A stretch of 64,000 nucleotides of DNA, from positions 62,001-126,000 of the IMG/VR virus record IMGVR_UViG_3300047476_001426. One strand, written 5' to 3'. Shown in pieces: positions 1-49,805 of the stretch (positions are counted from its first letter, which is position 1; each line of letters begins with the position of its first letter). This DNA comes from a virus. The notes under the pieces are model-generated. The model worked only from the letters and a program-made list of their open reading frames with translations. It did not search any database and was not told the DNA's origin. The translations under genes and the position numbers were made by a program.

Positions 1-1219
1 TTGTTGGTTTAACTGACAAGAACACACTTGATGTTGGTAAACTTGAGCAAGTTGTTGGACTGGTTGAATTTACAATTGCTCTATAGTATGTTGTTTTAGT
101 TAGATTAGTTAAGGTAATAGTTGATGATGTGCTTGATATTGTTGTACCAGCGGTAAAAAAGTTATCAAATGAAGATTCCCATCTCACAATACTACCTGTA
201 TATCCATTAAGTGTTAGTGTTGTACTATTACTACCTGAACAAACATTAATATCACCACCACTAATATACCCACTTGATGCCCCACTAATTTCTACGTTTC
301 TTGTTAATATGGTTGTACTTGTGGTGATGTCACCTGGCATGTCACCATATTCACAAATATATCCGGGTAGAGATGTGTTTGGTAAATCATTCCATTGACC
401 TAAATTACCTGAATAAAATTGACCGTAATGTTCTCCACCAGCATTATTAGGTTCCCCACCCGCCCATTTTGCATATTGACCTGTAACAGCAGTACTACCA
501 TTGGAAAATTGAGTTCCCTTCTCAGGTCCTGTAACCCAATGCCACTTTTGTTCAACGGCTGCTTGTGATGCGAACGTAGTGGTACCTTTAGCGGTATTGA
601 CCACACCCATTTCATCTGAAGCACCAAACCAACCATCTGATGACATTAATTTCCAAATAAAATTATTTTCCGCCTCAGATGACATTGTTGCCAAATAACC
701 CGCTCTACCAAAATATGAACGATTTTCTGCGGATGTTTTTGAATTTGTCCATGTTGTTGAACCAGAAACATATTCATAAAAATGTTCAGTTAATGGGTTG
801 TAAAATACAATTCCCGCAACAAATGTTACTCTTCTTTGTAGTGCATAACAGGTAGAGGTTGTTGACCTAAATTCAACTCCTCTTAAAACCGTTTCCCAAT
901 TTGAAGCTGTTGTTGTTCCATTAAAAACTAACACCCCTGTGGTTGTATTGAATGCGGAAACAGTAATACCAGACGGTAAAGTTGCTGTTGACCTTAATTG
1001 GTCACCACTTACGCCACTTATGTAACTTTGAGATATTTGAACTCTAAACCCATTAATCGTACCATTCGCAGTCAAAGTAAGATTCGGGTCAACCTTTGTC
1101 CAAGTATTAAAACTTGCGGAAAGTGTACCCGTACTCGATGTACCTAAAGAAACTGATGTTGCTTGTGAGTAACCGAGAATCGGTAAAATTAAAAGTAATA
1201 TAAAAATTAAATTTCTCAT
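1..1219 (-). CDS. Secreted C-type lectin-fold adhesin (C-terminus beyond window)
   Basis: The reading frame is open from an ATG at 1219 to the window edge, about 406 codons. It begins with a signal peptide (MRNLIFILLLILPILGYSQA). Residues about 150-285 have the C-type lectin pattern: YLATMSSEAENNFIW, GEPNNAGGEHYGQF, QWNDLP and a closing GYICEYG. A Cys/Ser/Thr-rich beta-type segment follows (TCSSLPTSSVFLSVKP), like repeats in large Bacteroidetes adhesins. The start overlaps the stop of the upstream gene (ATGA), so the two are translationally coupled. A role as fibre or surface adhesin is inferred from the fold. Confidence 0.75.
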   Translation of the reverse strand, partial: MRNLIFILLLILPILGYSQATSVSLGTSSTGTLSASFNTWTKVDPNLTLTANGTINGFRVQISQSYISGVSGDQLRSTATLPSGITVSAFNTTTGVLVFNGTTTASNWETVLRGVEFRSTTSTCYALQRRVTFVAGIVFYNPLTEHFYEYVSGSTTWTNSKTSAENRSYFGRAGYLATMSSEAENNFIWKLMSSDGWFGASDEMGVVNTAKGTTTFASQAAVEQKWHWVTGPEKGTQFSNGSTAVTGQYAKWAGGEPNNAGGEHYGQFYSGNLGQWNDLPNTSLPGYICEYGDMPGDITTSTTILTRNVEISGASSGYISGGDINVCSGSNSTTLTLNGYTGSIVRWESSFDNFFTAGTTISSTSSTITLTNLTKTTYYRAIVNSTSPTTCSSLPTSSVFLSVKPT

Positions 1220-2976
1220 AAATTTATCTTACTACCAACTAAGAAAAATGATAGAATTGGAAATTCAGGGTTTGTACTCATGTTCGCTTTATAGTTAACA
1301 TTTAACTTAAAACGCTTTGAGATTTGATAGTCAAAACCACTACCAATAAAACCACTCACATATCTATCAGTTATTGATACATTGTCTTTAGATGAATAAA
1401 CTAAGGGTGTTGAAATAACGTATAATTCGGGTGACACAATTAATTTTTTACCAACTTTAAATGGTCTTGTGTAAAAAGCGGTGATAGATGGTGAATAATA
1501 ACCATTCTTTTCTTCCGATATAATCGTTGCTGCTGCACTTACGTTAAAACCCGTAATACCATATTTCCCACCATTTAAAATACCACTATAACCAATAAAC
1601 CCTAAATAATTACCATAAGTGTAAACTCCTGTCAGGTTTATGTTATGAATGAACTTCAACTTTTTTGTTTTATTGTAATGTATTTTAGTATATTTTGTTG
1701 ACACAGCAAACTGTTTGAAATTTAACCAAACCATACCAGTTACACCATAACTTGATAAACCTGTCATTGACGATTTACTTGTTCCAATGTTTACTATTGG
1801 GGTGAAAGTTCTATTCAAATTTTGAGCGGAGGTAACATCAGAAGAAACAATGATAGGGTTAGACCTCGCACTACCCCCACCACCTGATTTACCTTTTCCA
1901 CCACTGTTTGAACCACCAGAACCACCGGCATTATTATCATTGTGAGCATCGTTGTTCATTTGTGTTGTTGCACCAACTTCTTCACCTTGTTGTTGGGTGT
2001 TGTTTTGATTATTATTTCCATTAGAGGTACCCGTTCCACCACTATTTGAGTTTCCTGAACCTCCGCTATTTCCTGTGGTAGTAGAACCTCCAGAACCCCC
2101 GTTATTACCTGAAGTTCCCGAACTTCCCGAACCATTATTTCCTGTGTTTGTTCCGTTGGTTGTTCCCGAACCACCTGTTGTGCTCGAACCATTTGAACCC
2201 CCGTTATTTGATGGAGACCCATTTCCGTTATTAGAACTACCTGTTGACCCTGAACCACCGTTGTTCGAACCAGAATTGTTTGATGGGGTTGACCCATTAG
2301 AGTTACCCGAACCTACAGATGGTTGAGTCGTTGAATTTCCCCCCTGAGTTGAGTTACCTGTACTTGATGACGTTCCTCCATTTGTTGAATTTCCACTTCC
2401 TTGAGTCGAGTTACTTCCTCCATTTGTTGAATTAGTTCCTGAATTCGATTGGGATTGTCCTCCATTTTGAGTTGTACTATTATTCGTAGTATTTGATTGA
2501 GATGAATTACTTCCATTTCCTTGATTATTATTGTTTTTCTTCTTATCAGAATTTTTATTATCCTTACCACCAGCATCACTACTACCCGAAGAACCAGTTT
2601 CTAAACTAGATGATTGTGCTTGACTACTTGACAATATCGAACTCACAACTGATTGAACCGTACTACCAATAATTTGTGCGGTTATTTGGTTTTGAGTTAC
2701 TTGACCCTGTTGTTGTGAACATGGGTTTGTTTGTCTGTATGTGGTATAAACCTGATTTACCCAATTGGAAAATGTTCCATTGGATAAATCGTTCGCGTCA
2801 AAACTACCAACATTATTTAAAAAAATAATCATCGTTTTACCCCCCTGTATTGGTACACTAAATATTGTGACTTCTTTTGTACAAGGGTCTATAAAAGTAT
2901 ACGTTGATACTTGTGCTTTCGATACATTATATACGAAAGTAAGAAAAAATGTTAATATTAATGTCTTAATGTTCAT
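1216..2976 (-). CDS. Secreted low-complexity protein with C-terminal outer-membrane beta-barrel-like domain
   Basis: 586 aa. A signal peptide (MNIKTLILTFFLTFVYNVSKAQ) precedes a small N-terminal domain (residues 23-100). A very long Ser/Asn/Gly/Thr-rich linker follows (about 125-375), then about 200 residues of alternating aromatic/polar strands (YGVTGMVWLNFKQFAVSTKY, NINLTGVYTYGNYLGFIGY, FDYQISKRFKLNVNYK), typical of an outer-membrane barrel. The terminal SFFLVGSKINL resembles a last barrel strand. It sits in a minus-strand envelope operon with a CsgG-like and an adhesin gene. Function is not recognised. The linker codons give long antisense shadow ORFs that are not genes. Confidence 0.75.
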   Translation of the reverse strand: MNIKTLILTFFLTFVYNVSKAQVSTYTFIDPCTKEVTIFSVPIQGGKTMIIFLNNVGSFDANDLSNGTFSNWVNQVYTTYRQTNPCSQQQGQVTQNQITAQIIGSTVQSVVSSILSSSQAQSSSLETGSSGSSDAGGKDNKNSDKKKNNNNQGNGSNSSQSNTTNNSTTQNGGQSQSNSGTNSTNGGSNSTQGSGNSTNGGTSSSTGNSTQGGNSTTQPSVGSGNSNGSTPSNNSGSNNGGSGSTGSSNNGNGSPSNNGGSNGSSTTGGSGTTNGTNTGNNGSGSSGTSGNNGGSGGSTTTGNSGGSGNSNSGGTGTSNGNNNQNNTQQQGEEVGATTQMNNDAHNDNNAGGSGGSNSGGKGKSGGGGSARSNPIIVSSDVTSAQNLNRTFTPIVNIGTSKSSMTGLSSYGVTGMVWLNFKQFAVSTKYTKIHYNKTKKLKFIHNINLTGVYTYGNYLGFIGYSGILNGGKYGITGFNVSAAATIISEEKNGYYSPSITAFYTRPFKVGKKLIVSPELYVISTPLVYSSKDNVSITDRYVSGFIGSGFDYQISKRFKLNVNYKANMSTNPEFPILSFFLVGSKINL

Positions 2977-3035: not shown

Positions 3036-3794
3036 TTATTTAGGGAATACACCCTTTTTTATCATTCTTAATAGAATTCTAGAACACGCAATATCTAATG
3101 CTTTTTTGGTGCTAATCCCTATTGTCGATTGATTAAATTTAACTTCACTTAAATTATCGTCATTTAGTAAACTTAATTCTCTAACGGTAACCGCTTCACC
3201 CAATCCACTAGCAGCAATTATTTGACCCGTTTCCGCATCGGTAAATCTAACTTGTAACCCTAATCTTGTAACAACAGTGTTTTTAACACCATTACTAAGA
3301 TTAACCGTCTCATCCTCACTCACTGAAAATTCATAAACTTCAATTGTAACAAAATAGTGTGCTAAACGTATTTTTCCTCTACCATCTAATGTGTCATAAC
3401 TAATACCCGCTTGAGAGGCTTGGTATTGTTTCACCATTCTATTTTTGATTTCGGTTTTGTCCTCAGTAAATGTGAATCTATTTAAATTCTCCAAATATTC
3501 TAATGTTATATTTGCCACACCTAAACCCACCTTCTTTTCTTTTAATTCAGGATATTGTTCGTATACCTCATCACTGATACCAATTTTTAAAATTTGTATT
3601 GGTATTTGGGGGCCATCGTAATCCATTAAAGAATCGATACTAACATTAGTCTCAAATGATGCTTTATATTGTTCTGTTTGAGTTTTACCAACAACCTGTG
3701 CACTTACAGTATTAGCAAAAACAAACATCAATACAAACCATAGTATTATCAGAATTACTGGTGATAATAGTTTTTCTATGACAAATTTTTTCAT
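3036..3794 (-). CDS. CsgG-like secreted protein (curli-transporter fold)
   Basis: 252 aa from the ATG at 3794. The frame extends 27 nt upstream, but the chosen start follows the upstream stop with 1-nt spacing and gives a clean signal/TM segment (LLSPVILIILWFVLMFVFANTVSAQ). The middle (VGLGVANITLEYLENLNRFTFTEDKTEIKNRM) and the beta-rich section (RLAHYFVTIEVYEFSVSE, RLGLQVRFTDAETGQIIAASGLGEA) follow the CsgG pattern of alpha/beta core plus barrel strands. CsgG forms an outer-membrane export pore. No lipobox Cys is visible, so export activity is uncertain. Confidence 0.5.
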   Translation of the reverse strand: MKKFVIEKLLSPVILIILWFVLMFVFANTVSAQVVGKTQTEQYKASFETNVSIDSLMDYDGPQIPIQILKIGISDEVYEQYPELKEKKVGLGVANITLEYLENLNRFTFTEDKTEIKNRMVKQYQASQAGISYDTLDGRGKIRLAHYFVTIEVYEFSVSEDETVNLSNGVKNTVVTRLGLQVRFTDAETGQIIAASGLGEAVTVRELSLLNDDNLSEVKFNQSTIGISTKKALDIACSRILLRMIKKGVFPK

Positions 3795-3795
3795 T

Positions 3796-4332
3796 TTACT
3801 CGGGGTCTTGTATTTTACCACATTTTAAACATTCCAACTCACCGTCATTGTCTTGGTCGCCCCAAACATGTTCACATTGTCTATGTTCAAAATATTCATC
3901 AATTATACCGTCATTATCATAATCTAAACCATCCATAACACCATCACCATCTTCATCGATTTCAACACCGACCTTTGACGATGATTCTGTAATTACTTCA
4001 TTTTTAGTTTCATTGCTTGACGATTTCATGTCAGCAGTGTTTGAAAAAGAAACACCATCTTCCTCATCCATTTTTTGGACTAACATTTTATCCTTATCGG
4101 TATCACTGAACCAATAATCAATGATTTTACCATAAGAACCAATGAAAGCACCTAATAAAAGAAGTAGTAGTTCTTTCCATTCACCACCGATTTCATTTTT
4201 ACCTATAATCGCGGCGAAAATACCGGCCATAATAAACATAAAACCACCCAAGACGATAGCGGTAATAAACCACCTTCTTCTCATCATTGCGTTAAGAAGG
4301 TCTCTAAATCCGGTTGGTTGATTGTTTACCAT
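3796..4332 (-). CDS. Two-TM membrane protein with calcium-loop and zinc-ribbon tail
   Basis: 178 aa. Two membrane segments (WFITAIVLGGFMFIMAGIFAAII and ELLLLLLGAFIGSYGKIIDYWF) resemble a phage holin core. The tail carries thrombospondin type-3-like Asp loops (DEDGDGVMDGLDYDNDGIID) and a Cys/His cluster (CEHVWG...LECLKCGK) likely to bind zinc. The start overlaps the stop of 4326-4667 by a few bases. The combination is unusual; a holin or envelope-anchor role is inference. Confidence 0.6.
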   Translation of the reverse strand: MVNNQPTGFRDLLNAMMRRRWFITAIVLGGFMFIMAGIFAAIIGKNEIGGEWKELLLLLLGAFIGSYGKIIDYWFSDTDKDKMLVQKMDEEDGVSFSNTADMKSSSNETKNEVITESSSKVGVEIDEDGDGVMDGLDYDNDGIIDEYFEHRQCEHVWGDQDNDGELECLKCGKIQDPE

Positions 4333-4667
4333 TGTGGCTCCTTTTCTTTAAATTCATCACCCTCTTTTTTAGGTTTTGCGGGTTCTGACTTAACCGGTTT
4401 TTCAACCACTCTTTCTTTTATTATGGTTGTGTTACCACCACCACTTGATGACGTATTCTTAGAAGAATTGTCAACATTCAAATTAATTACAGGTGCTGCT
4501 TGCTGTGTTTGAGTTGGTTCCTTTTCTTTGTCATCACCCCCACCAAATAAGGTGGTGGTAAAGTAAGTTCCACCCGCCATAACCGCAGTGGTAATAACCC
4601 CAATAATTGTTTTCTTAAGTCCTGACCATGTTCCGTCAGATTCTGGTACGTTTGTTTCTTCGCTCAT
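4326..4667 (-). CDS. Single-TM membrane protein with charged tail
   Basis: 113 aa. A short cytoplasmic N-terminus precedes one TM helix (TIIGVITTAVMAGGTYFTTTLF), then a Gln/Ser/Gly-rich linker and a Lys/Glu/Pro-rich tail (KPVKSEPAKPKKEGDEFKEKEPQW). It lies between the T9SS-tailed gene and the two-TM gene in the same operon. The domain order resembles spanin- or anchor-like phage proteins, but no family is recognised. Confidence 0.6.
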   Translation of the reverse strand: MSEETNVPESDGTWSGLKKTIIGVITTAVMAGGTYFTTTLFGGGDDKEKEPTQTQQAAPVINLNVDNSSKNTSSSGGGNTTIIKERVVEKPVKSEPAKPKKEGDEFKEKEPQW

Positions 4668-4671
4668 TGTT

Positions 4672-6585
4672 TTAAACTTTTACAAATTGTTTAGTTAATT
4701 GTTTATTATAATTATGCAAAACCAAGTAATAATTACCGGCTGCGGATGATGTCATATCGATTTGTTTATATGCAATTTTCTCTGATGAATTGGTTGTAAC
4801 AGAACCGATGTTTTTCACCAATTGACCTCTTACATCATAAATTGAACCGTTCATTTCCATGTTTGGATTTGGGAATCTAATTTCAATTTCAAACCATCCA
4901 CTTGTTGGGTTTGGTCTTATTGATGCTGTAATCTCATCAATTGATTGGTCTGTAGGTGGTGCCATTTTATACATGATAACCGCAACACTACTAACCAAAT
5001 CAATATTTAAATGGTCACCCTTCTCATCTGATGCATCCATTAATTGTCTCACATAAATGTTACTTACAATATCATTACCACCAATTGGTGAGAATTTAAG
5101 TTTAAATGGTGTTGATTGACCTATTAAACCATCTTTCATCTGATTGTTCATCCCACCGAATCTAATTGTACCATTAGAAGCATCGTGAGTAACATATTGT
5201 AACCATGGACCACCATTAAAATTTGATATAATCTCCTCAAACTTAACTTTAGTTTTATCGTATTTCATTTCAAACTGTAAACCATAATTGTTATCACCAT
5301 TTGTGTTAACATTGAATGGTACATATAATGGTTGACTTCCTGATGCTGAAGTATTAGGTATTTCAACATCTAATTTACCTTTAAACACCGCCTTAGCAAC
5401 TAATACCCCCGATGAGTTCCATACTCTTGATGAATACGTTCTGTCTACGTCACCTTGAATAAAGTACTTAATGTTTACTGTTTTATTAACTAAACCAACA
5501 CTATCCGTGATAAAATTGGTTGCGGTTAAATGGTTTGGCCAATCATTCCATTGAGTTGAACCTAAAACTAAAGAATCATAAACACTCGCGTGGAAAGTTC
5601 TAATCATTGTTGTGGTATCTATCTTTTTCATACCACTTACGTTCGCGTAAATTAGATATGGGTCACCACCATCCAATTTTCCGTTTTGGTTCATATCACC
5701 AATAAGGTATGCCAAACCATTTTTTAAGTATTGTTGTCCAAATCCTTGGTTAACGTCTGTAATTGTGTATTCATCATATGTCTTTACAGCGTCTGATATT
5801 GTAACCGCGTAATCTCTGAAGACTTCCATACTATCTGCTGGAAATCTAACCAATAATTTATATTTGGTATTTTTATCTACATTGTTTAATGAGTAGTTAC
5901 CAGCGGTGTCACATAAAGAAGATGAAACAAATGTGCCTGTATTATACTTTGTACATATTACTGTTGGTCTTCTACCGGCCAATTTCATTGTTGGAGGTAA
6001 TTCAACAACACCACTAATCACCAAGTTACCCAAAAGTTCAAGGTGCATATCTTGTACATTTAAGATTGCGATGTTATCACCAATTGTAGAACCGTCATAC
6101 TTAAACATTCTTGCCCAGTTAATTTCAACACTGTCAGCATCAAAGTTTGATTCTACGTCATTAATAATAAATTTGTTATGTATTAAAAATGTGTCTTGTG
6201 TTATTTGAGAACCACTTGAAAGTACCAAGAAATTTCTTGCCACAGTATAGTTGGTATCACTTGTGTATGAATACAAACCTGTACCTGAACTGTAACTTGA
6301 ATATTTGTAATTGTTAAAGAATTTTATCGAAAGTGCTGGAGTCATGGTACTCACAGTTGGGTCAACAGTAGTTGATACGTGAGTAAAAAGTTGTTTCCTA
6401 TATTGGAAATCAACTTGGAATGTTCTCACATCAACCGCGGATGCTGGTGTGTATTTAAACACAACATCTAAAGTATCACCTCTTTTGATAGTTTTATACG
6501 CAACGGGGTTACCTATTTCAGGTGTTTGTGAAAACGCCATTGTCGTGACAAATAAAGTAATTAGGGATAAAATTATTTTTTTCAT
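4672..6585 (-). CDS. Secreted cohesin/dockerin-like protein with T9SS sorting domain
   Basis: 637 aa with signal peptide (MKKIILSLITLFVTTMAFSQ). Residues about 25-190 and 430-540 look like cohesin-type beta domains (RTFQVDFQYRKQLFTHVS; LQFEMKYDKTKVKFEEI). A calcium/dockerin-like loop (GDMNQNGKLDGGDPYLIY) lies near 300. The last about 80 residues (IRPNPTSGWFEIEI, YDVRGQLVKNIG, GNYYLVLHNYNKQLTKQFVKV) match a type A T9SS C-terminal sorting domain, which in Bacteroidetes directs cell-surface secretion. A T9SS-tailed protein in a phage implies use of the host secretion system. Its start overlaps the stop of 6582-7079. Confidence 0.8.
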   Translation of the reverse strand: MKKIILSLITLFVTTMAFSQTPEIGNPVAYKTIKRGDTLDVVFKYTPASAVDVRTFQVDFQYRKQLFTHVSTTVDPTVSTMTPALSIKFFNNYKYSSYSSGTGLYSYTSDTNYTVARNFLVLSSGSQITQDTFLIHNKFIINDVESNFDADSVEINWARMFKYDGSTIGDNIAILNVQDMHLELLGNLVISGVVELPPTMKLAGRRPTVICTKYNTGTFVSSSLCDTAGNYSLNNVDKNTKYKLLVRFPADSMEVFRDYAVTISDAVKTYDEYTITDVNQGFGQQYLKNGLAYLIGDMNQNGKLDGGDPYLIYANVSGMKKIDTTTMIRTFHASVYDSLVLGSTQWNDWPNHLTATNFITDSVGLVNKTVNIKYFIQGDVDRTYSSRVWNSSGVLVAKAVFKGKLDVEIPNTSASGSQPLYVPFNVNTNGDNNYGLQFEMKYDKTKVKFEEIISNFNGGPWLQYVTHDASNGTIRFGGMNNQMKDGLIGQSTPFKLKFSPIGGNDIVSNIYVRQLMDASDEKGDHLNIDLVSSVAVIMYKMAPPTDQSIDEITASIRPNPTSGWFEIEIRFPNPNMEMNGSIYDVRGQLVKNIGSVTTNSSEKIAYKQIDMTSSAAGNYYLVLHNYNKQLTKQFVKV

Positions 6586-7079
6586 AGTATTAATTTGTTA
6601 ATTAAGGTTTGAGTTGTTTTCTTTAATGCCGAACTAGCAGATTGTTGATTGAATTTACCACCCTCATCAATCATAATAGTTGAGGTTGAAATTTCAGTGG
6701 ATTTACCCTCTGAGAATTCCTGTTTAATTTTTTTATCACCTTTATATAGGACACCTTTCATTCTTATAACGGTAGTTGTCTTGTCTTCGTGAAAAATACT
6801 AACCCCCGAGTTAGTGGTTACAATATCAAAAAATATGAGCTCGACTTTAATTTTATAGTCCGCCTTATTTTTATCTGTAATCAGAATTAAACTGTCCTGT
6901 TCGTTTATGATTTCTTCTATTATATTTTTTACACCAAAAGCCAAATTTTTATTTTCGGTAAACGGACCAATCTTAATGTTGTTGATTACTGTGTCAACAA
7001 CAATAGTTTGTGCGTTCAGATTGGAAAACCCAAATGATATTAAAAAAAATAGTAATATGATTGGCAGTCTTGTCATCAC
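6582..7079 (-). CDS. Secreted CsgG/lipoprotein-like small protein
   Basis: 165 aa. A signal peptide (LPIILLFFLISFGFSNLNAQ) precedes an alpha/beta domain (FGVKNIIEEIINEQDSLILITDKNKADYKIKVELIFFDI...) recalling periplasmic domains of CsgG-like proteins that sit next to outer-membrane pores. There is no lipobox Cys. It is translationally coupled (ATGA overlap) to the T9SS-tailed protein, so the two probably act together. Confidence 0.6.
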   Translation of the reverse strand: MMTRLPIILLFFLISFGFSNLNAQTIVVDTVINNIKIGPFTENKNLAFGVKNIIEEIINEQDSLILITDKNKADYKIKVELIFFDIVTTNSGVSIFHEDKTTTVIRMKGVLYKGDKKIKQEFSEGKSTEISTSTIMIDEGGKFNQQSASSALKKTTQTLINKLIL

Positions 7080-7116: not shown

Positions 7117-7371
7117 TTACTCAGATACTGAATCGTCTGATTTTTTCTTATGTGAGAACTTGTCTAAAGTATCTGCACCCATTCCAATGGCAGTAATTAC
7201 CATTACCGCATTTACCAATTCTTCTGATGGTTTAATGTCACCATGTGTAAAAGAGTTTGCCATCATGGTTCCGCAAAGGAAAAGTGCACCTAATAGTGCG
7301 ATTACCGGTTTGATTGAAGTTGACCCTCTTTCATCTTTGAATAGGTCAATAATCCATTTTTTAAAGTTCAT
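7117..7371 (-). CDS. Two-TM holin-like protein
   Basis: 84 aa. An amphipathic start (MNFKKWIIDLFKDERGSTSIK) is followed by TM1 (PVIALLGALFLCGTMMAN), a short loop, TM2 (ELVNAVMVITAIGMGADTL) and a charged tail (KFSHKKKSDD). Size and topology fit a phage holin, but no specific family is certain. It is the first gene of the minus-strand envelope cassette, with the phage GTATTTATA motif 37 bp upstream and a terminator after it. Confidence 0.6.
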   Translation of the reverse strand: MNFKKWIIDLFKDERGSTSIKPVIALLGALFLCGTMMANSFTHGDIKPSEELVNAVMVITAIGMGADTLDKFSHKKKSDDSVSE

Positions 7372-7407: not shown

Positions 7408-7416
7408 TATAAATAC
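7408..7416 (-). promoter_or_regulatory. GTATTTATA motif upstream of the holin-like gene
   Basis: On the minus strand this reads GTATTTATA, the 9-mer seen in front of many genes in this window. It is a candidate phage-specific promoter element for the envelope cassette. Confidence 0.45.
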
Positions 7417-16385: not shown

Positions 16386-16457
16386 GGTCTCGTGGTGTAG
16401 CGGTAACATTACGGTCTCTAAAACCGATAGTCACGGGTTCAAATCCCGTCGGGACCA
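16386..16457 (+). tRNA. Amber suppressor tRNA (anticodon CTA)
   Basis: Acceptor GGTCTCG/CGGGACC, T-arm ACGGG TTCAAAT CCCGT, anticodon loop CTCTAAA with conserved T33, giving anticodon CTA that pairs with UAG. The D-arm (GTGTAGCGGTAACAT) is close to the phage tRNA-Gln D-arm, suggesting glutamine charging, but other identities are possible. The structure is fully canonical, so it should be functional. It lies downstream of two genes with early in-frame TAG codons. Confidence 0.9.
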
Positions 16458-16497
16458 CAACAAAAAAAAATATTTTTAAAAAAAATTACAAAAATAC

Positions 16498-29970: not shown

Positions 29971-30768
29971 TTACTTTCTCATCCCTTTTGGGACTTTTTT
30001 TATGAATTTATCATTTTCTTTATCTATGAATTTGAAAATTTCTACATCGATATTGTACTTATCACACAAAACCTTCATTGCCTTTGTGTCTTTAGGTAAA
30101 CATACACCAGCATATCCACCAAATTCGTCATTAACATTCAAATAATGACTTTCTCCAACACCATGAAATAAAAACGCATCTTTTATTGCTCCGTAATTTG
30201 CACCAAAGTGTTGACACACTCGGTGAAATGAATTTGCAAATGTTATTTTAGTTGCTTTATAGGTGTTTGAGAAATATTTCATTAACTCGGCTTCAACAGT
30301 TTTCATTTTGACTCTATGTACAGGAAGAGTACCATGACTTTCAACTATTAAATCATAATCCGAGTCATTATCTACACCAACAACAAGAATATTATTGTTA
30401 AAAACAAAATCATTGAATGCACAACGTTCTTTCAAAAACTCAGGTACAAATGCAAACCTCAAATTTGAATATTGTAGTTTTAGTTTATCCGTGGTTCCCG
30501 GTTCTACCGTGCTTTTAATTGCAATTAATCCTGTGTAGTTTAAATCATTCAATTGACCAACAACACTATTCACTGCTGTCAAATCACATTCCTCATTTAA
30601 ACCGATTAATGTGCTCACTGTTAAATAAGTGATTTCACAACCTAAAACATCTTCTATTTTTGTCTCAGGCATTTTTATATCATATGCAGATACTTCATGT
30701 CCTATGTATTCAAAACCATCTTTGATGGCTTGACCTACAACACCGATACCTATGACTCCAATTTTCAT
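29971..30768 (-). CDS. UDP-glucose/GDP-mannose dehydrogenase-like protein, truncated form
   Basis: 265 aa. NAD motif GVIGIGVVGQAI, KSTVEPGTTDKL, VPEFLKERCAFNDF and the catalytic Cys loop GGYAGVCLPKDTKAM are all present. Family members are about 390-450 aa; the C-terminal UDP-binding domain is missing. It may form a minimal enzyme or work with a partner. One nt from the SDR gene downstream. Confidence 0.8.
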   Translation of the reverse strand: MKIGVIGIGVVGQAIKDGFEYIGHEVSAYDIKMPETKIEDVLGCEITYLTVSTLIGLNEECDLTAVNSVVGQLNDLNYTGLIAIKSTVEPGTTDKLKLQYSNLRFAFVPEFLKERCAFNDFVFNNNILVVGVDNDSDYDLIVESHGTLPVHRVKMKTVEAELMKYFSNTYKATKITFANSFHRVCQHFGANYGAIKDAFLFHGVGESHYLNVNDEFGGYAGVCLPKDTKAMKVLCDKYNIDVEIFKFIDKENDKFIKKVPKGMRK

Positions 30769-47270: not shown

Positions 47271-48539
47271 TTAATTTTTTAAATTTATTTCTTTTCTTTC
47301 CACCCAACCTCTTTCAGGTGAGTGTGCCCAATAAACGACTCTTACTGGTTCTTTTTCAATTGTAAACATTTCTTCATAGTGAATTGGCCCATCACCATTC
47401 AAAAATCTTTGTAAATTATGACCGTCAATATATTTGTTAAATATTGATAGTCCGTCCTCATCATCATAAGCAACTAAAATAAAATCATAATCGTTTTCTG
47501 GTAAATCATATCTATCTATGTTAACTAGATGATAAAAAGATTTCATAAATGATGATTCCCATTCCTCTTCACTATCAAATTGTGGATTTGGTGGGAATTT
47601 ATCATCAACTGTCCATTTTTGGAATGCTCTTTTTTTGAAATGTATGCCAGCATATTTCTCGTAATCTCGAACAGTCCTCACAGTACCGAGTCCATATGGA
47701 CCTAAATCGTGTCCGTTATCCTCAGTCCCTAATAATTGTCTAATTCTTGAACGAGCGATGTCATTACCTTTCCACCACATACTTTCACCTCGTTTATGTT
47801 GGTCATCCCAAACCAATTTACCTGCACGTTCTTCTCTCATGGTTGCGTGCCATATAACAACTTCATGTGGATGAAATAAATCATAACCATATGTGTAACT
47901 TCTAACTGATAAGTTGATTTCTTCACCCGCGAAAAATATATTTGGGTCGTGTCTTACTTCTTTTGCCCATTGATTTGGACCAAAACAAAAATGTCCACTA
48001 ATAAATCGAGCGGGATATGGTTTTGTTAAATGTTGCCAACCACCTCTAACCGCGGATGGTCTAATAAAAATAGTTCCATGTGGGTAGAAACATTCAGCCC
48101 TCGAAAACCACGGTTCTTGGACTCTTTTCTCAGGGTCGTTGAATGGGTCATAGTACGGTAAATAACCACAGATTAATGGATTGTGTCCATCATTCTTTAA
48201 TTCCTCATACCATCCAATTAATTTAGAATCCCAATTTTCTGAAAATCTATGATGTGAATCTAATTGACAAACAAAATCCTCATCCGTTAACAGTTCTTCA
48301 TTTATTACCGAGCGAGCATACGCTAACCCCTTTGCCTCAGTATAAAGAATATCTTTAATTTTAAATCTCGGGTCATCTCTATATTCATCAACATTATCAA
48401 ATCCATCTTCAGGATTGAATTGTCTACATATACCAAAATGAATTCTTTCAGGGAATTCGGCGTTCTCTAAAGCACTTTTTATTGTTGGTATTAATTCGGG
48501 TTCTCTATACGCAGGTAAATGAACTAATATTTTCTTCAT
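47271..48539 (-). CDS. GlcNAc-family glycosyltransferase, paralogue 1
   Basis: 422 aa. ILVHLPAYREPELIPTIKSALENAEFPERIHFGICRQ is the start of the GlcNAc glycosyltransferase family. FVCQLDSHHRFSENWD holds the DxH metal motif. FFAGEEINLSVRSYTYGYDLFHPHEVVIWH is the conserved late core. Extensive similarity to 48549-49805. Probably adds GlcNAc-like sugar to protein or glycan. Confidence 0.85.
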   Translation of the reverse strand: MKKILVHLPAYREPELIPTIKSALENAEFPERIHFGICRQFNPEDGFDNVDEYRDDPRFKIKDILYTEAKGLAYARSVINEELLTDEDFVCQLDSHHRFSENWDSKLIGWYEELKNDGHNPLICGYLPYYDPFNDPEKRVQEPWFSRAECFYPHGTIFIRPSAVRGGWQHLTKPYPARFISGHFCFGPNQWAKEVRHDPNIFFAGEEINLSVRSYTYGYDLFHPHEVVIWHATMREERAGKLVWDDQHKRGESMWWKGNDIARSRIRQLLGTEDNGHDLGPYGLGTVRTVRDYEKYAGIHFKKRAFQKWTVDDKFPPNPQFDSEEEWESSFMKSFYHLVNIDRYDLPENDYDFILVAYDDEDGLSIFNKYIDGHNLQRFLNGDGPIHYEEMFTIEKEPVRVVYWAHSPERGWVERKEINLKN

Positions 48540-48548
48540 ATAATTTTT

Positions 48549-49805
48549 TTATAATGTTCCTTCTAATCTATTACACCAACCATGTTCTTGGGAGTGTGGC
48601 CATACATACCATTTAGCTGGTTTTTTATCAGTTTCAAAACTTCTCCATAGTTTACAATAACCATCAATGTCATTTTTCATATTTCGAATCTCATCAGGGT
48701 TAGCGTCTTGTCTAAAGATTTCATTACCATCCTCATCATCAAACGATACCGCCCAAAAAGTATAATCGTCATGTGGAACATCGTGATAACCAATATCAAT
48801 ACAATGTTTAAACATGAAAGTAAATGAATTATCGTATTCTATTTGGTCTTCGATGTATGGGTTTGGTGGGTGATTAAATTCTAAAGTGAATTTTTGTGCT
48901 GCTCTCTTTTTAAAAGAGATACCCGAATACCTTTCGTATTGGTCCAAGGTTCTGTTTTTACCAAATCCAAACTCACCGAAATTAATTTCTTTACCGTCAT
49001 CTTCCATTCCGAATAACTTCCTATTCTTATAGTGACTGTATTCATTTCTCTTGTGCCAAACGGGGTCATCATCCCATTGTTTAGTGGAACCTTTTCTTGT
49101 GTAATAGTGCCAAATCAAAACTCTATGTAAATGAAATAAGTCATATCCGTGAGTATATGCCCTAACAGAGATTGAGATTTCTTCACCATGAAAATAATAA
49201 TCGGGGTCATGTTGTACCTCTAAAGCAAATTGTCCGAGTGTAAAACAAAAATGTGCGGAATAAAATCTGGCATGAACGGGTTCTGTTCTTTCTTTAAAAT
49301 CATCAATAGACGCTGGTAAAAAATGGACATTACCATCAGGACTGAATCTATCAAAATTCATTTTCCAAGGAACGTGTAATCTACCTTTTGGGTCGTTATC
49401 TGGTTCATACGATGGTATGTAACCAGTCAACATTGGTTTTTTATGTCCCTTTTCTTGTAATCTTTTTAATTCACCAATTAACTCGGTGTCCCAATTCTTT
49501 GTAAACCTGTGATGTGAATCCAATTGTAGTGTGTATTCTTCACCACCGTATTGTTGTTGTAACATGTATCTTGCCCAACACGGACCTTTCGCTTTGGTAT
49601 AATCAATATCAATTATTTTAAATCGAGGGTCACATTTATATTCATCTAAATTATCCCACTCATCTTCTTTGGAGTGTTGCCATGCAATTGAGAAGACTAA
49701 ATTTTCGGGATGTTTAGCTTTCTTGATACAATCTTTTAAGGTTGGCAGTAGTTCCTTATCCCTATATGCTGCCATTTGTATAAAAATCTTTCCGTTACCA
49801 GACAT
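48549..49805 (-). CDS. GlcNAc-family glycosyltransferase, paralogue 2
   Basis: 418 aa. IFIQMAAYRDKELLPTLKDCIKKAKHPENLVFSIAWQ, YTLQLDSHHRFTKNWD and YFHGEEISISVRAYTHGYDLFHLHRVLIWH match 47271-48539 throughout. First gene of the minus-strand cluster; the start leaves a 101-bp divergent region to 49907. The upstream sequence has TTGACA and TATTTT, but no clear consensus promoter. Confidence 0.85.
   Translation of the reverse strand: MSGNGKIFIQMAAYRDKELLPTLKDCIKKAKHPENLVFSIAWQHSKEDEWDNLDEYKCDPRFKIIDIDYTKAKGPCWARYMLQQQYGGEEYTLQLDSHHRFTKNWDTELIGELKRLQEKGHKKPMLTGYIPSYEPDNDPKGRLHVPWKMNFDRFSPDGNVHFLPASIDDFKERTEPVHARFYSAHFCFTLGQFALEVQHDPDYYFHGEEISISVRAYTHGYDLFHLHRVLIWHYYTRKGSTKQWDDDPVWHKRNEYSHYKNRKLFGMEDDGKEINFGEFGFGKNRTLDQYERYSGISFKKRAAQKFTLEFNHPPNPYIEDQIEYDNSFTFMFKHCIDIGYHDVPHDDYTFWAVSFDDEDGNEIFRQDANPDEIRNMKNDIDGYCKLWRSFETDKKPAKWYVWPHSQEHGWCNRLEGTL

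What the first reader, a model, noticed from the sequence alone, without database searches (positions are those of the whole stretch)
4672..6585. Phage-encoded protein with a type IX secretion sorting domain
The last 80 residues follow the type A T9SS tail pattern after cohesin-like and dockerin-like parts. The T9SS is specific to Bacteroidetes. The phage would export this protein through the host system, possibly to change the cell surface during infection.
Basis: partly seen in the sequence, partly recalled or inferred. Interest (0 to 1): 0.7.

Follow-up and report, generated by a model that had tools for sequence, protein, structure and literature searches.

The report
Phage surface operon with T9SS tail
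A large virus of Bacteroidota bacteria carries a gene whose protein ends in the tag that these bacteria use to send proteins to their own cell surface; the gene belongs to a conserved set of viral membrane and surface genes, probably switched on late in infection, that hundreds of related virus fragments appear to share and that seems built to remodel the infected cell's outer surface.

Summary
ORF 4672-6585(-) encodes 637 residues ending in a type IX secretion (T9SS) type A sorting domain: PF18962 E 2e-7 and TIGR04183, both over their cut-offs. The tail's model aligns with the C-terminal domain of PorU (Z 9.5, 23% identity), and residues 404-542 are a cohesin fold (Z 13.5). The record is viral. 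The protein is conserved in 15 other viral loci, and a shorter counterpart occurs in the cultured Flavobacterium phage immuto.

The larger finding is the surroundings: a conserved operon with a CsgG-fold outer-membrane pore, a YajG/TraT-like protein, a barrel-type protein, inner-membrane proteins and a lectin/dockerin-like protein. At least 431 IMG/VR stretches encode the CsgG-like protein. In 70 of 82 loci the slot after the large surface protein holds either a fused tail (38) or a tail-like lipoprotein (32), never both. The operon head carries the TATTTATA motif found upstream of virion genes but not replication genes, so expression is probably late.

Phage-encoded T9SS cargo (Cryophage, 2020) and phage CsgG modules (pelagiphages, 2020) were already reported; their combination, with the tail exchanged for a lipoprotein, appears new. 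Export through the host T9SS remains untested.

The parts
4672..6585 (-). 637-aa surface protein: signal-peptide-like N-terminus, N-terminal beta-rich region, dockerin-like loop, cohesin domain, T9SS type A tail
4678..4914 (-). T9SS type A sorting domain (residues 558-636)
   Evidence: PF18962 and TIGR04183 over cut-off; PorU C-terminal domain match
4960..5376 (-). cohesin-fold domain (residues 404-542)
   Evidence: Z 13.5 to solved cohesins; HMM sub-threshold in the window protein
5662..5697 (-). dockerin-like calcium loop DMNQNGKLDGGD (residues 297-308)
   Evidence: motif count against shuffles
7408..7415 (-). promoter-like TATTTATA motif at the operon head
   Evidence: 31 upstream occurrences against 1.4 expected in the record; class association in immuto
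7117..7371 (-). p84, small protein with two hydrophobic stretches, first gene of the set
6582..7079 (-). YajG/TraT-like exported protein (165 aa)
   Evidence: 13 of 22 relatives match PF03923, best E 9e-6; 4 match TraT
4326..4667 (-). p113, one hydrophobic stretch, Pro-rich tail ending in Trp
3796..4332 (-). p178, two hydrophobic stretches and a C-terminal zinc-ribbon-like CxH/CxxC motif
3036..3821 (-). CsgG-fold outer-membrane pore-like protein (261 aa)
   Evidence: Foldseek E 3e-7 and VIA-align Z 12.4 to CsgG
1216..2976 (-). 586-aa protein: conserved N-terminal part, long Ser/Gly/Asn-rich linker, C-terminal region that reads as a beta-barrel
   Evidence: barrel reading is by eye
1..1219 (-). 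N-terminal part of the 764-aa lectin/Ig-like/dockerin-like protein that runs off the window start (whole gene L018:10925-13219)

Best explanation
The 637-aa protein is a subunit of a phage-made envelope and cell-surface complex, most likely produced late in infection of a Bacteroidota host. Shown: the T9SS tail, the cohesin fold, a dockerin-type loop, a CsgG-fold neighbour, and tight conservation of the gene set. Inferred: the protein crosses the inner membrane by Sec; its tail is recognised by the host T9SS, so that it is placed on or anchored to the outer face of the cell; there its cohesin and dockerin parts hold partners such as the dockerin-bearing lectin, next to the CsgG-type pore and barrel protein. 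In relatives whose large protein lacks the tail, a lipoprotein carrying the same kind of domain stands in its place, so the domain probably serves to attach the complex to the outer membrane. The result would be a remodelled surface of the dying cell, for example masking receptors so that released progeny and late-coming phages do not bind to the cell or its debris, or gluing cells together.
For: T9SS tail over cut-off with PorU-type fold; conserved in 38 loci as a fusion and under purifying selection; same slot holds tail-like lipoproteins in 32 loci, never both, linked by profile comparison and one PF18962 match at E 7e-6; CsgG fold; YajG/TraT-like partner; lectin, PA14 and cohesin domains in relatives; late-type motif; counterpart in a phage of Flavobacterium, a genus that typically has a T9SS (established knowledge; host genome not checked).
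Against: No host or secretion data. The lipoprotein version shows that the domain can work without being fused to the large protein. Most divergent lipoproteins match the tail only weakly. The first-listed function (masking) is one of several and has no direct support. An endolysin gene adjoins the operon in 28 relatives, which also fits lysis.
Confidence: 0.5

Rival explanations
1. The tail is not used by the host T9SS. It is a beta-sandwich assembly module inside a phage-encoded secretion or surface complex built on the CsgG-type pore and the barrel protein, which exports or anchors the cohesin and lectin proteins itself.
For: The tail-like domain occurs on separate lipoproteins in 32 loci in the same slot; the phage supplies its own CsgG-fold protein.
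Against: The fused tails pass the T9SS-specific models over cut-off and sit at the exact C-terminus; CsgG itself exports small unfolded proteins, not folded multi-domain ones (established knowledge).
Confidence: 0.22
2. The operon is a lysis or release module: the CsgG-type pore and small membrane proteins open or weaken the outer membrane at the end of infection.
For: Late-type motif; an endolysin gene adjoins the operon in 28 relatives and lies inside it in L034; small proteins with hydrophobic stretches; lysis role proposed for CsgG of phage Melnitz (PMC9004378).
Against: Immuto has a separate annotated chitinase and holin; the window's own endolysin lies about 50 kb away; cohesin, dockerin and lectin parts have no obvious lysis role; no known holin family matched.
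Confidence: 0.18
3. The large proteins are virion components, for example host-binding decoration.
For: Late-type motif; lectin and PA14 domains are common in adsorption proteins.
Against: Signal-peptide-like N-termini and lipoproteins point to export, away from cytoplasmic virion assembly.
Confidence: 0.07
4. The T9SS match is a chance similarity of an ordinary Ig-like domain.
For: TIGR04183 score only just over its cut-off (23.4 against 23).
Against: PF18962 E 2e-7, recurrence across 38 loci, purifying selection, PorU C-terminal domain match.
Confidence: 0.03

Closest known systems
Cryophage T9SS cargo proteins (Bellas et al. 2020, PMC7468147)
   Same: Phage-encoded proteins with T9SS type A sorting domains, proposed to use the host T9SS.
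   Different: Cryophage cargo: endoglucanase, GH39 and PA14 proteins in variable islands. Here: cohesin/dockerin protein in a conserved operon with a CsgG-fold protein, and a lipoprotein alternative.
crAss-BACON genes near T9SS sorting-domain proteins (PMC6949934)
   Same: Gut phages with T9SS sorting domains, one fused to BACON repeats.
   Different: No CsgG, cohesin or dockerin context reported in the passages read.
Curli-type CsgF/CsgG operons of pelagimyophages and phage Melnitz (PMC7029224, PMC9004378)
   Same: Phage operon with a CsgG-fold outer-membrane pore protein and partners; function unknown, lysis or sibling capture proposed.
   Different: Those hosts are Proteobacteria; here hosts are Bacteroidota, no CsgF recognised, no Pfam CsgG match, and surface proteins with T9SS tail, cohesin, dockerin and lectin parts are added.
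Cohesin-dockerin systems (cellulosomes)
   Same: Cohesin fold and dockerin-type calcium loops in proteins of one gene set.
   Different: No enzymes or multi-cohesin scaffold seen; single recognisable calcium loop; binding untested.

Membership tests
T9SS type A cargo (TIGR04183 / PF18962) | C-terminal sorting domain over the curated model cut-offs | tested here: met
   31.5 bits vs 27 and 23.4 vs 23, residues 558-636 of 637
T9SS type A cargo (TIGR04183 / PF18962) | Fold of the T9SS C-terminal domain | tested here: met
   residues 548-637 align with PorU C-terminal domain, Z 9.5, 23% identity
T9SS type A cargo (TIGR04183 / PF18962) | Sec signal peptide | tested here: inconclusive
   N-terminus MKKIILSLITLFVTTMAFSQ reads as one; no predictor was run
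T9SS type A cargo (TIGR04183 / PF18962) | T9SS-dependent secretion in a host with a T9SS | not testable with these tools
   host of the window phage unknown; needs experiment
Phage-encoded gene (not host DNA) | Embedded in phage genomes | tested here: met
   complete immuto genome with the operon; IMG/VR contigs; portal, terminase, endolysin in the same record; three matches among 84,980 bacterial and archaeal genomes, two with phage-like operons
CsgG family (PF03783) | Match to the Pfam family model | tested here: not met
   no CsgG match for 8 members up to E 5
CsgG family (PF03783) | CsgG fold | tested here: met
   Foldseek E 3e-7, VIA-align Z 12.4, model pLDDT 60
CsgG family (PF03783) | Lipoprotein signal | tested here: not met
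   no lipobox in 81 members by simple pattern
Cohesin (PF00963) | Match over the family cut-off | tested here: not met
   window protein 16.9 vs 24.1; relatives 36.7 and 32.4 pass
Cohesin (PF00963) | Cohesin fold | tested here: met
   Z 13.5 to 4uyp over 135 residues
Dockerin type I (PF00404) | Match over cut-off, duplicated calcium loop | tested here: not met
   no dockerin match listed for the window protein; 16.9 vs 22.9 in the 764-aa protein; one canonical loop only

The most novel reading that the evidence does not exclude
These phages carry a hybrid envelope apparatus that couples a CsgG-type outer-membrane pore with cargo sent through the host's T9SS, assembling a phage-made cohesin-dockerin-lectin layer on the infected cell late in infection; the sorting domain can be exchanged in evolution for a lipoprotein anchor carrying the same kind of fold.
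Probability: 0.3. Interest if true: 0.85.

Novelty: new variant of a known kind. Interest (0 to 1): 0.62.

Why it matters
Large phages of Bacteroidota recur in environmental virus collections, yet envelope genes such as these are mostly annotated as hypothetical. A conserved operon, seen in hundreds of contig stretches, that joins a CsgG-type pore to T9SS-tagged surface proteins would show that phages use the host's own secretion system to rebuild the cell surface. It makes the open question of what phage CsgG pores do testable in a cultured phage and host (immuto with Flavobacterium sp. LMO8), and the swap of sorting domain for lipoprotein gives a handle on what the T9SS tail does beyond export.

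Tried and rejected
Host DNA: rejected (see membership test). Chance match: rejected by conservation and selection. Profile searches of PDB sequences with the CsgG-like, YajG-like and barrel alignments gave no informative relative (the barrel hits lie in the low-complexity linker); the CsgG link rests on fold comparison. PHROGs gave no useful family for the operon proteins. Curli system in the strict sense: not claimed, because I recognised no CsgA/CsgB-like subunit and the Pfam CsgG family was not matched. Early superinfection exclusion: lowered, not excluded, because of the late-type motif. Linking p178 or p84 to known holin families by HMM failed; the resemblance is by eye. dN/dS was saturated at synonymous sites for some pairs. 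The CsgG-like tree has long branches for L017, L063 and L080, so two apparent reversals to the fused state may be misplacements or exchanges. Virion proteome data for immuto were not found in the papers held.

Full report
Observation. The ORF at 4672-6585 on the minus strand encodes 637 residues. Its last 80 residues match the T9SS type A sorting domain over both curated cut-offs: PF18962 at 31.5 bits (E 2.1e-7) and TIGR04183 at 23.4 bits (cut-off 23). A six-frame search of the whole 136.5-kb viral record finds this one tail. An AlphaFold model of the protein is weak overall (pLDDT 52) but good in the tail (80-87). Residues 404-542 align with cohesins (Z 13.5) and residues 548-637 with the C-terminal domain of PorU, itself a T9SS component (Z 9.5, 23% identity). 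A dockerin-type calcium loop is present at residues 297-308 (motif count). The start of the protein reads as a Sec signal peptide.

Not host DNA. The record contains endolysin, portal and T4-type terminase genes. Fifteen other IMG/VR loci encode the protein at 72-97% identity. The cultured Flavobacterium phage immuto (complete genome) encodes a 243-aa counterpart with cohesin and T9SS tail, both over cut-off. Scans of 84,980 bacterial and archaeal genomes with the neighbouring CsgG-like protein found nothing with the first alignment and three loci with a wider one; two of those carry the same phage-like operon, and one, in an Ignavibacteriales MAG, is a csgG-like plus yajG-like gene pair beside ordinary-looking bacterial genes, a possible cellular source.

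The operon. The gene lies in a set of closely spaced minus-strand genes: p84, a YajG/TraT-like protein, the T9SS-tail protein, p113, p178, a CsgG-fold protein, a barrel-type protein, and a 764-aa lectin/Ig-like/dockerin-like protein that runs off the window. The CsgG assignment rests on structure: the model's best Foldseek matches are CsgG chains (E 3e-7) and the VIA-align second look gives Z 12.4; the model has pLDDT 60 and there is no Pfam CsgG match. The YajG/TraT-like assignment rests on 13 of 22 relatives matching PF03923. Lectin_C reaches its cut-off in several relatives of the last protein, not in the window's own copy.

How widespread. In 81 loci with this gene (80 from IMG/VR plus immuto), the barrel-type family occurs in 76, the cohesin/dockerin/lectin/tail family in 74, p113 in 61, p178 in 60, the YajG-like family in 58 and p84 in 47, mostly in a similar order. 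Some of these contigs are near-copies of each other, so the counts are not independent.

The tail is movable. Of 47 csgG-bearing records searched, 39 have a PF18962 match at E<=0.01 and 25 are over the cut-off. In 38 of 82 loci (window included) the tail is fused to the large protein. In 32 the slot holds one or two lipoproteins of about 110-126 residues with a similar domain; none has both; 12 show neither, some of them because the contig ends. The lipoprotein of L075 matches PF18962 at E 7e-6, just under the gathering score. Profile comparisons connect fused tails, L075-type lipoproteins and the other lipoproteins in a chain (E 6e-4, 4e-5, 2e-12), with control domains of the large protein at E 0.03 or worse. 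The first link is the weakest. On the tree of the CsgG-like protein the two states need at least three changes, and the most divergent member, immuto, is fused. This suggests that the domain's role is attachment to the outer membrane, whether by T9SS sorting or by a lipid anchor. That reading is inference.

Timing. The 8-mer TATTTATA stands within 70 bases upstream of 31 of 145 called genes in the window's record against 1.4 expected, including the portal and terminase genes and p84, the operon head. In immuto it stands upstream of 9 of 18 annotated virion or packaging genes and 0 of 15 replication, metabolic and other genes (Fisher p 0.0014), and upstream of gene 13, the operon head, although that operon lies among replication genes. 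I chose the two classes from the annotation within the same analysis, so the p-value is indicative. In relatives the motif is common at operon heads (YajG-like 16 of 60, p84 7 of 47) and rare upstream of the large proteins (1 of 125). The operon is therefore probably expressed late.

Interpretation. A late operon whose products are exported, include an outer-membrane pore fold, and include lectin and cohesin/dockerin-like proteins is best read as a phage-made surface complex. The T9SS tail in the window's lineage would use the host system for placement. What the layer does (masking receptors, preventing re-adsorption, aggregation) is open. Lysis remains a rival because an endolysin gene adjoins the operon in 28 relatives and because a lysis role was proposed for the CsgG of phage Melnitz; against it, immuto has a separate annotated holin and chitinase.

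What is known. Phage-encoded T9SS cargo was reported for Cryophage (PMC7468147) and near crAss-BACON genes (PMC6949934). Phage CsgF/CsgG operons were reported in pelagimyophages (PMC7029224) and Melnitz (PMC9004378). I found no paper that describes the two together or phage cohesin/dockerin surface proteins, within an open-access library only, so the novelty claim is provisional.

Noticed in passing
window 16386-16458: A tRNA with a CTA anticodon (ARAGORN label Pyl) among 26 tRNA genes; TAG ends only 2 of 55 ORFs of 120 aa or more, so it may be an amber suppressor.
   Followed up: partly
L059:12688-15171 and nine other relatives: A phage-encoded TonB-dependent-receptor-like outer-membrane protein beside the csgG operon, and a lipase-like gene next to csgG in ten relatives.
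   Followed up: partly
window 3796-4332: p178 carries a conserved zinc-ribbon-like CxH/CxxC motif after two hydrophobic stretches; p113 relatives mostly end in Trp.
   Followed up: no
whole record G000, e.g. window 7408-7415: TATTTATA upstream of 31 genes on the coding strand and associated with virion genes in immuto: a candidate late promoter of these phages.
   Followed up: yes
window 47271-49805 and 29971-30768: Two tandem glycosyltransferase-family genes (phrog_24687) and a UDP-glucose dehydrogenase-like gene: further phage genes that may alter surface sugars.
   Followed up: no
L111:9986-11289: An Ignavibacteriales MAG has a csgG-like lipoprotein gene next to a yajG-like gene, a possible cellular relative of the phage pair.
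   Followed up: partly
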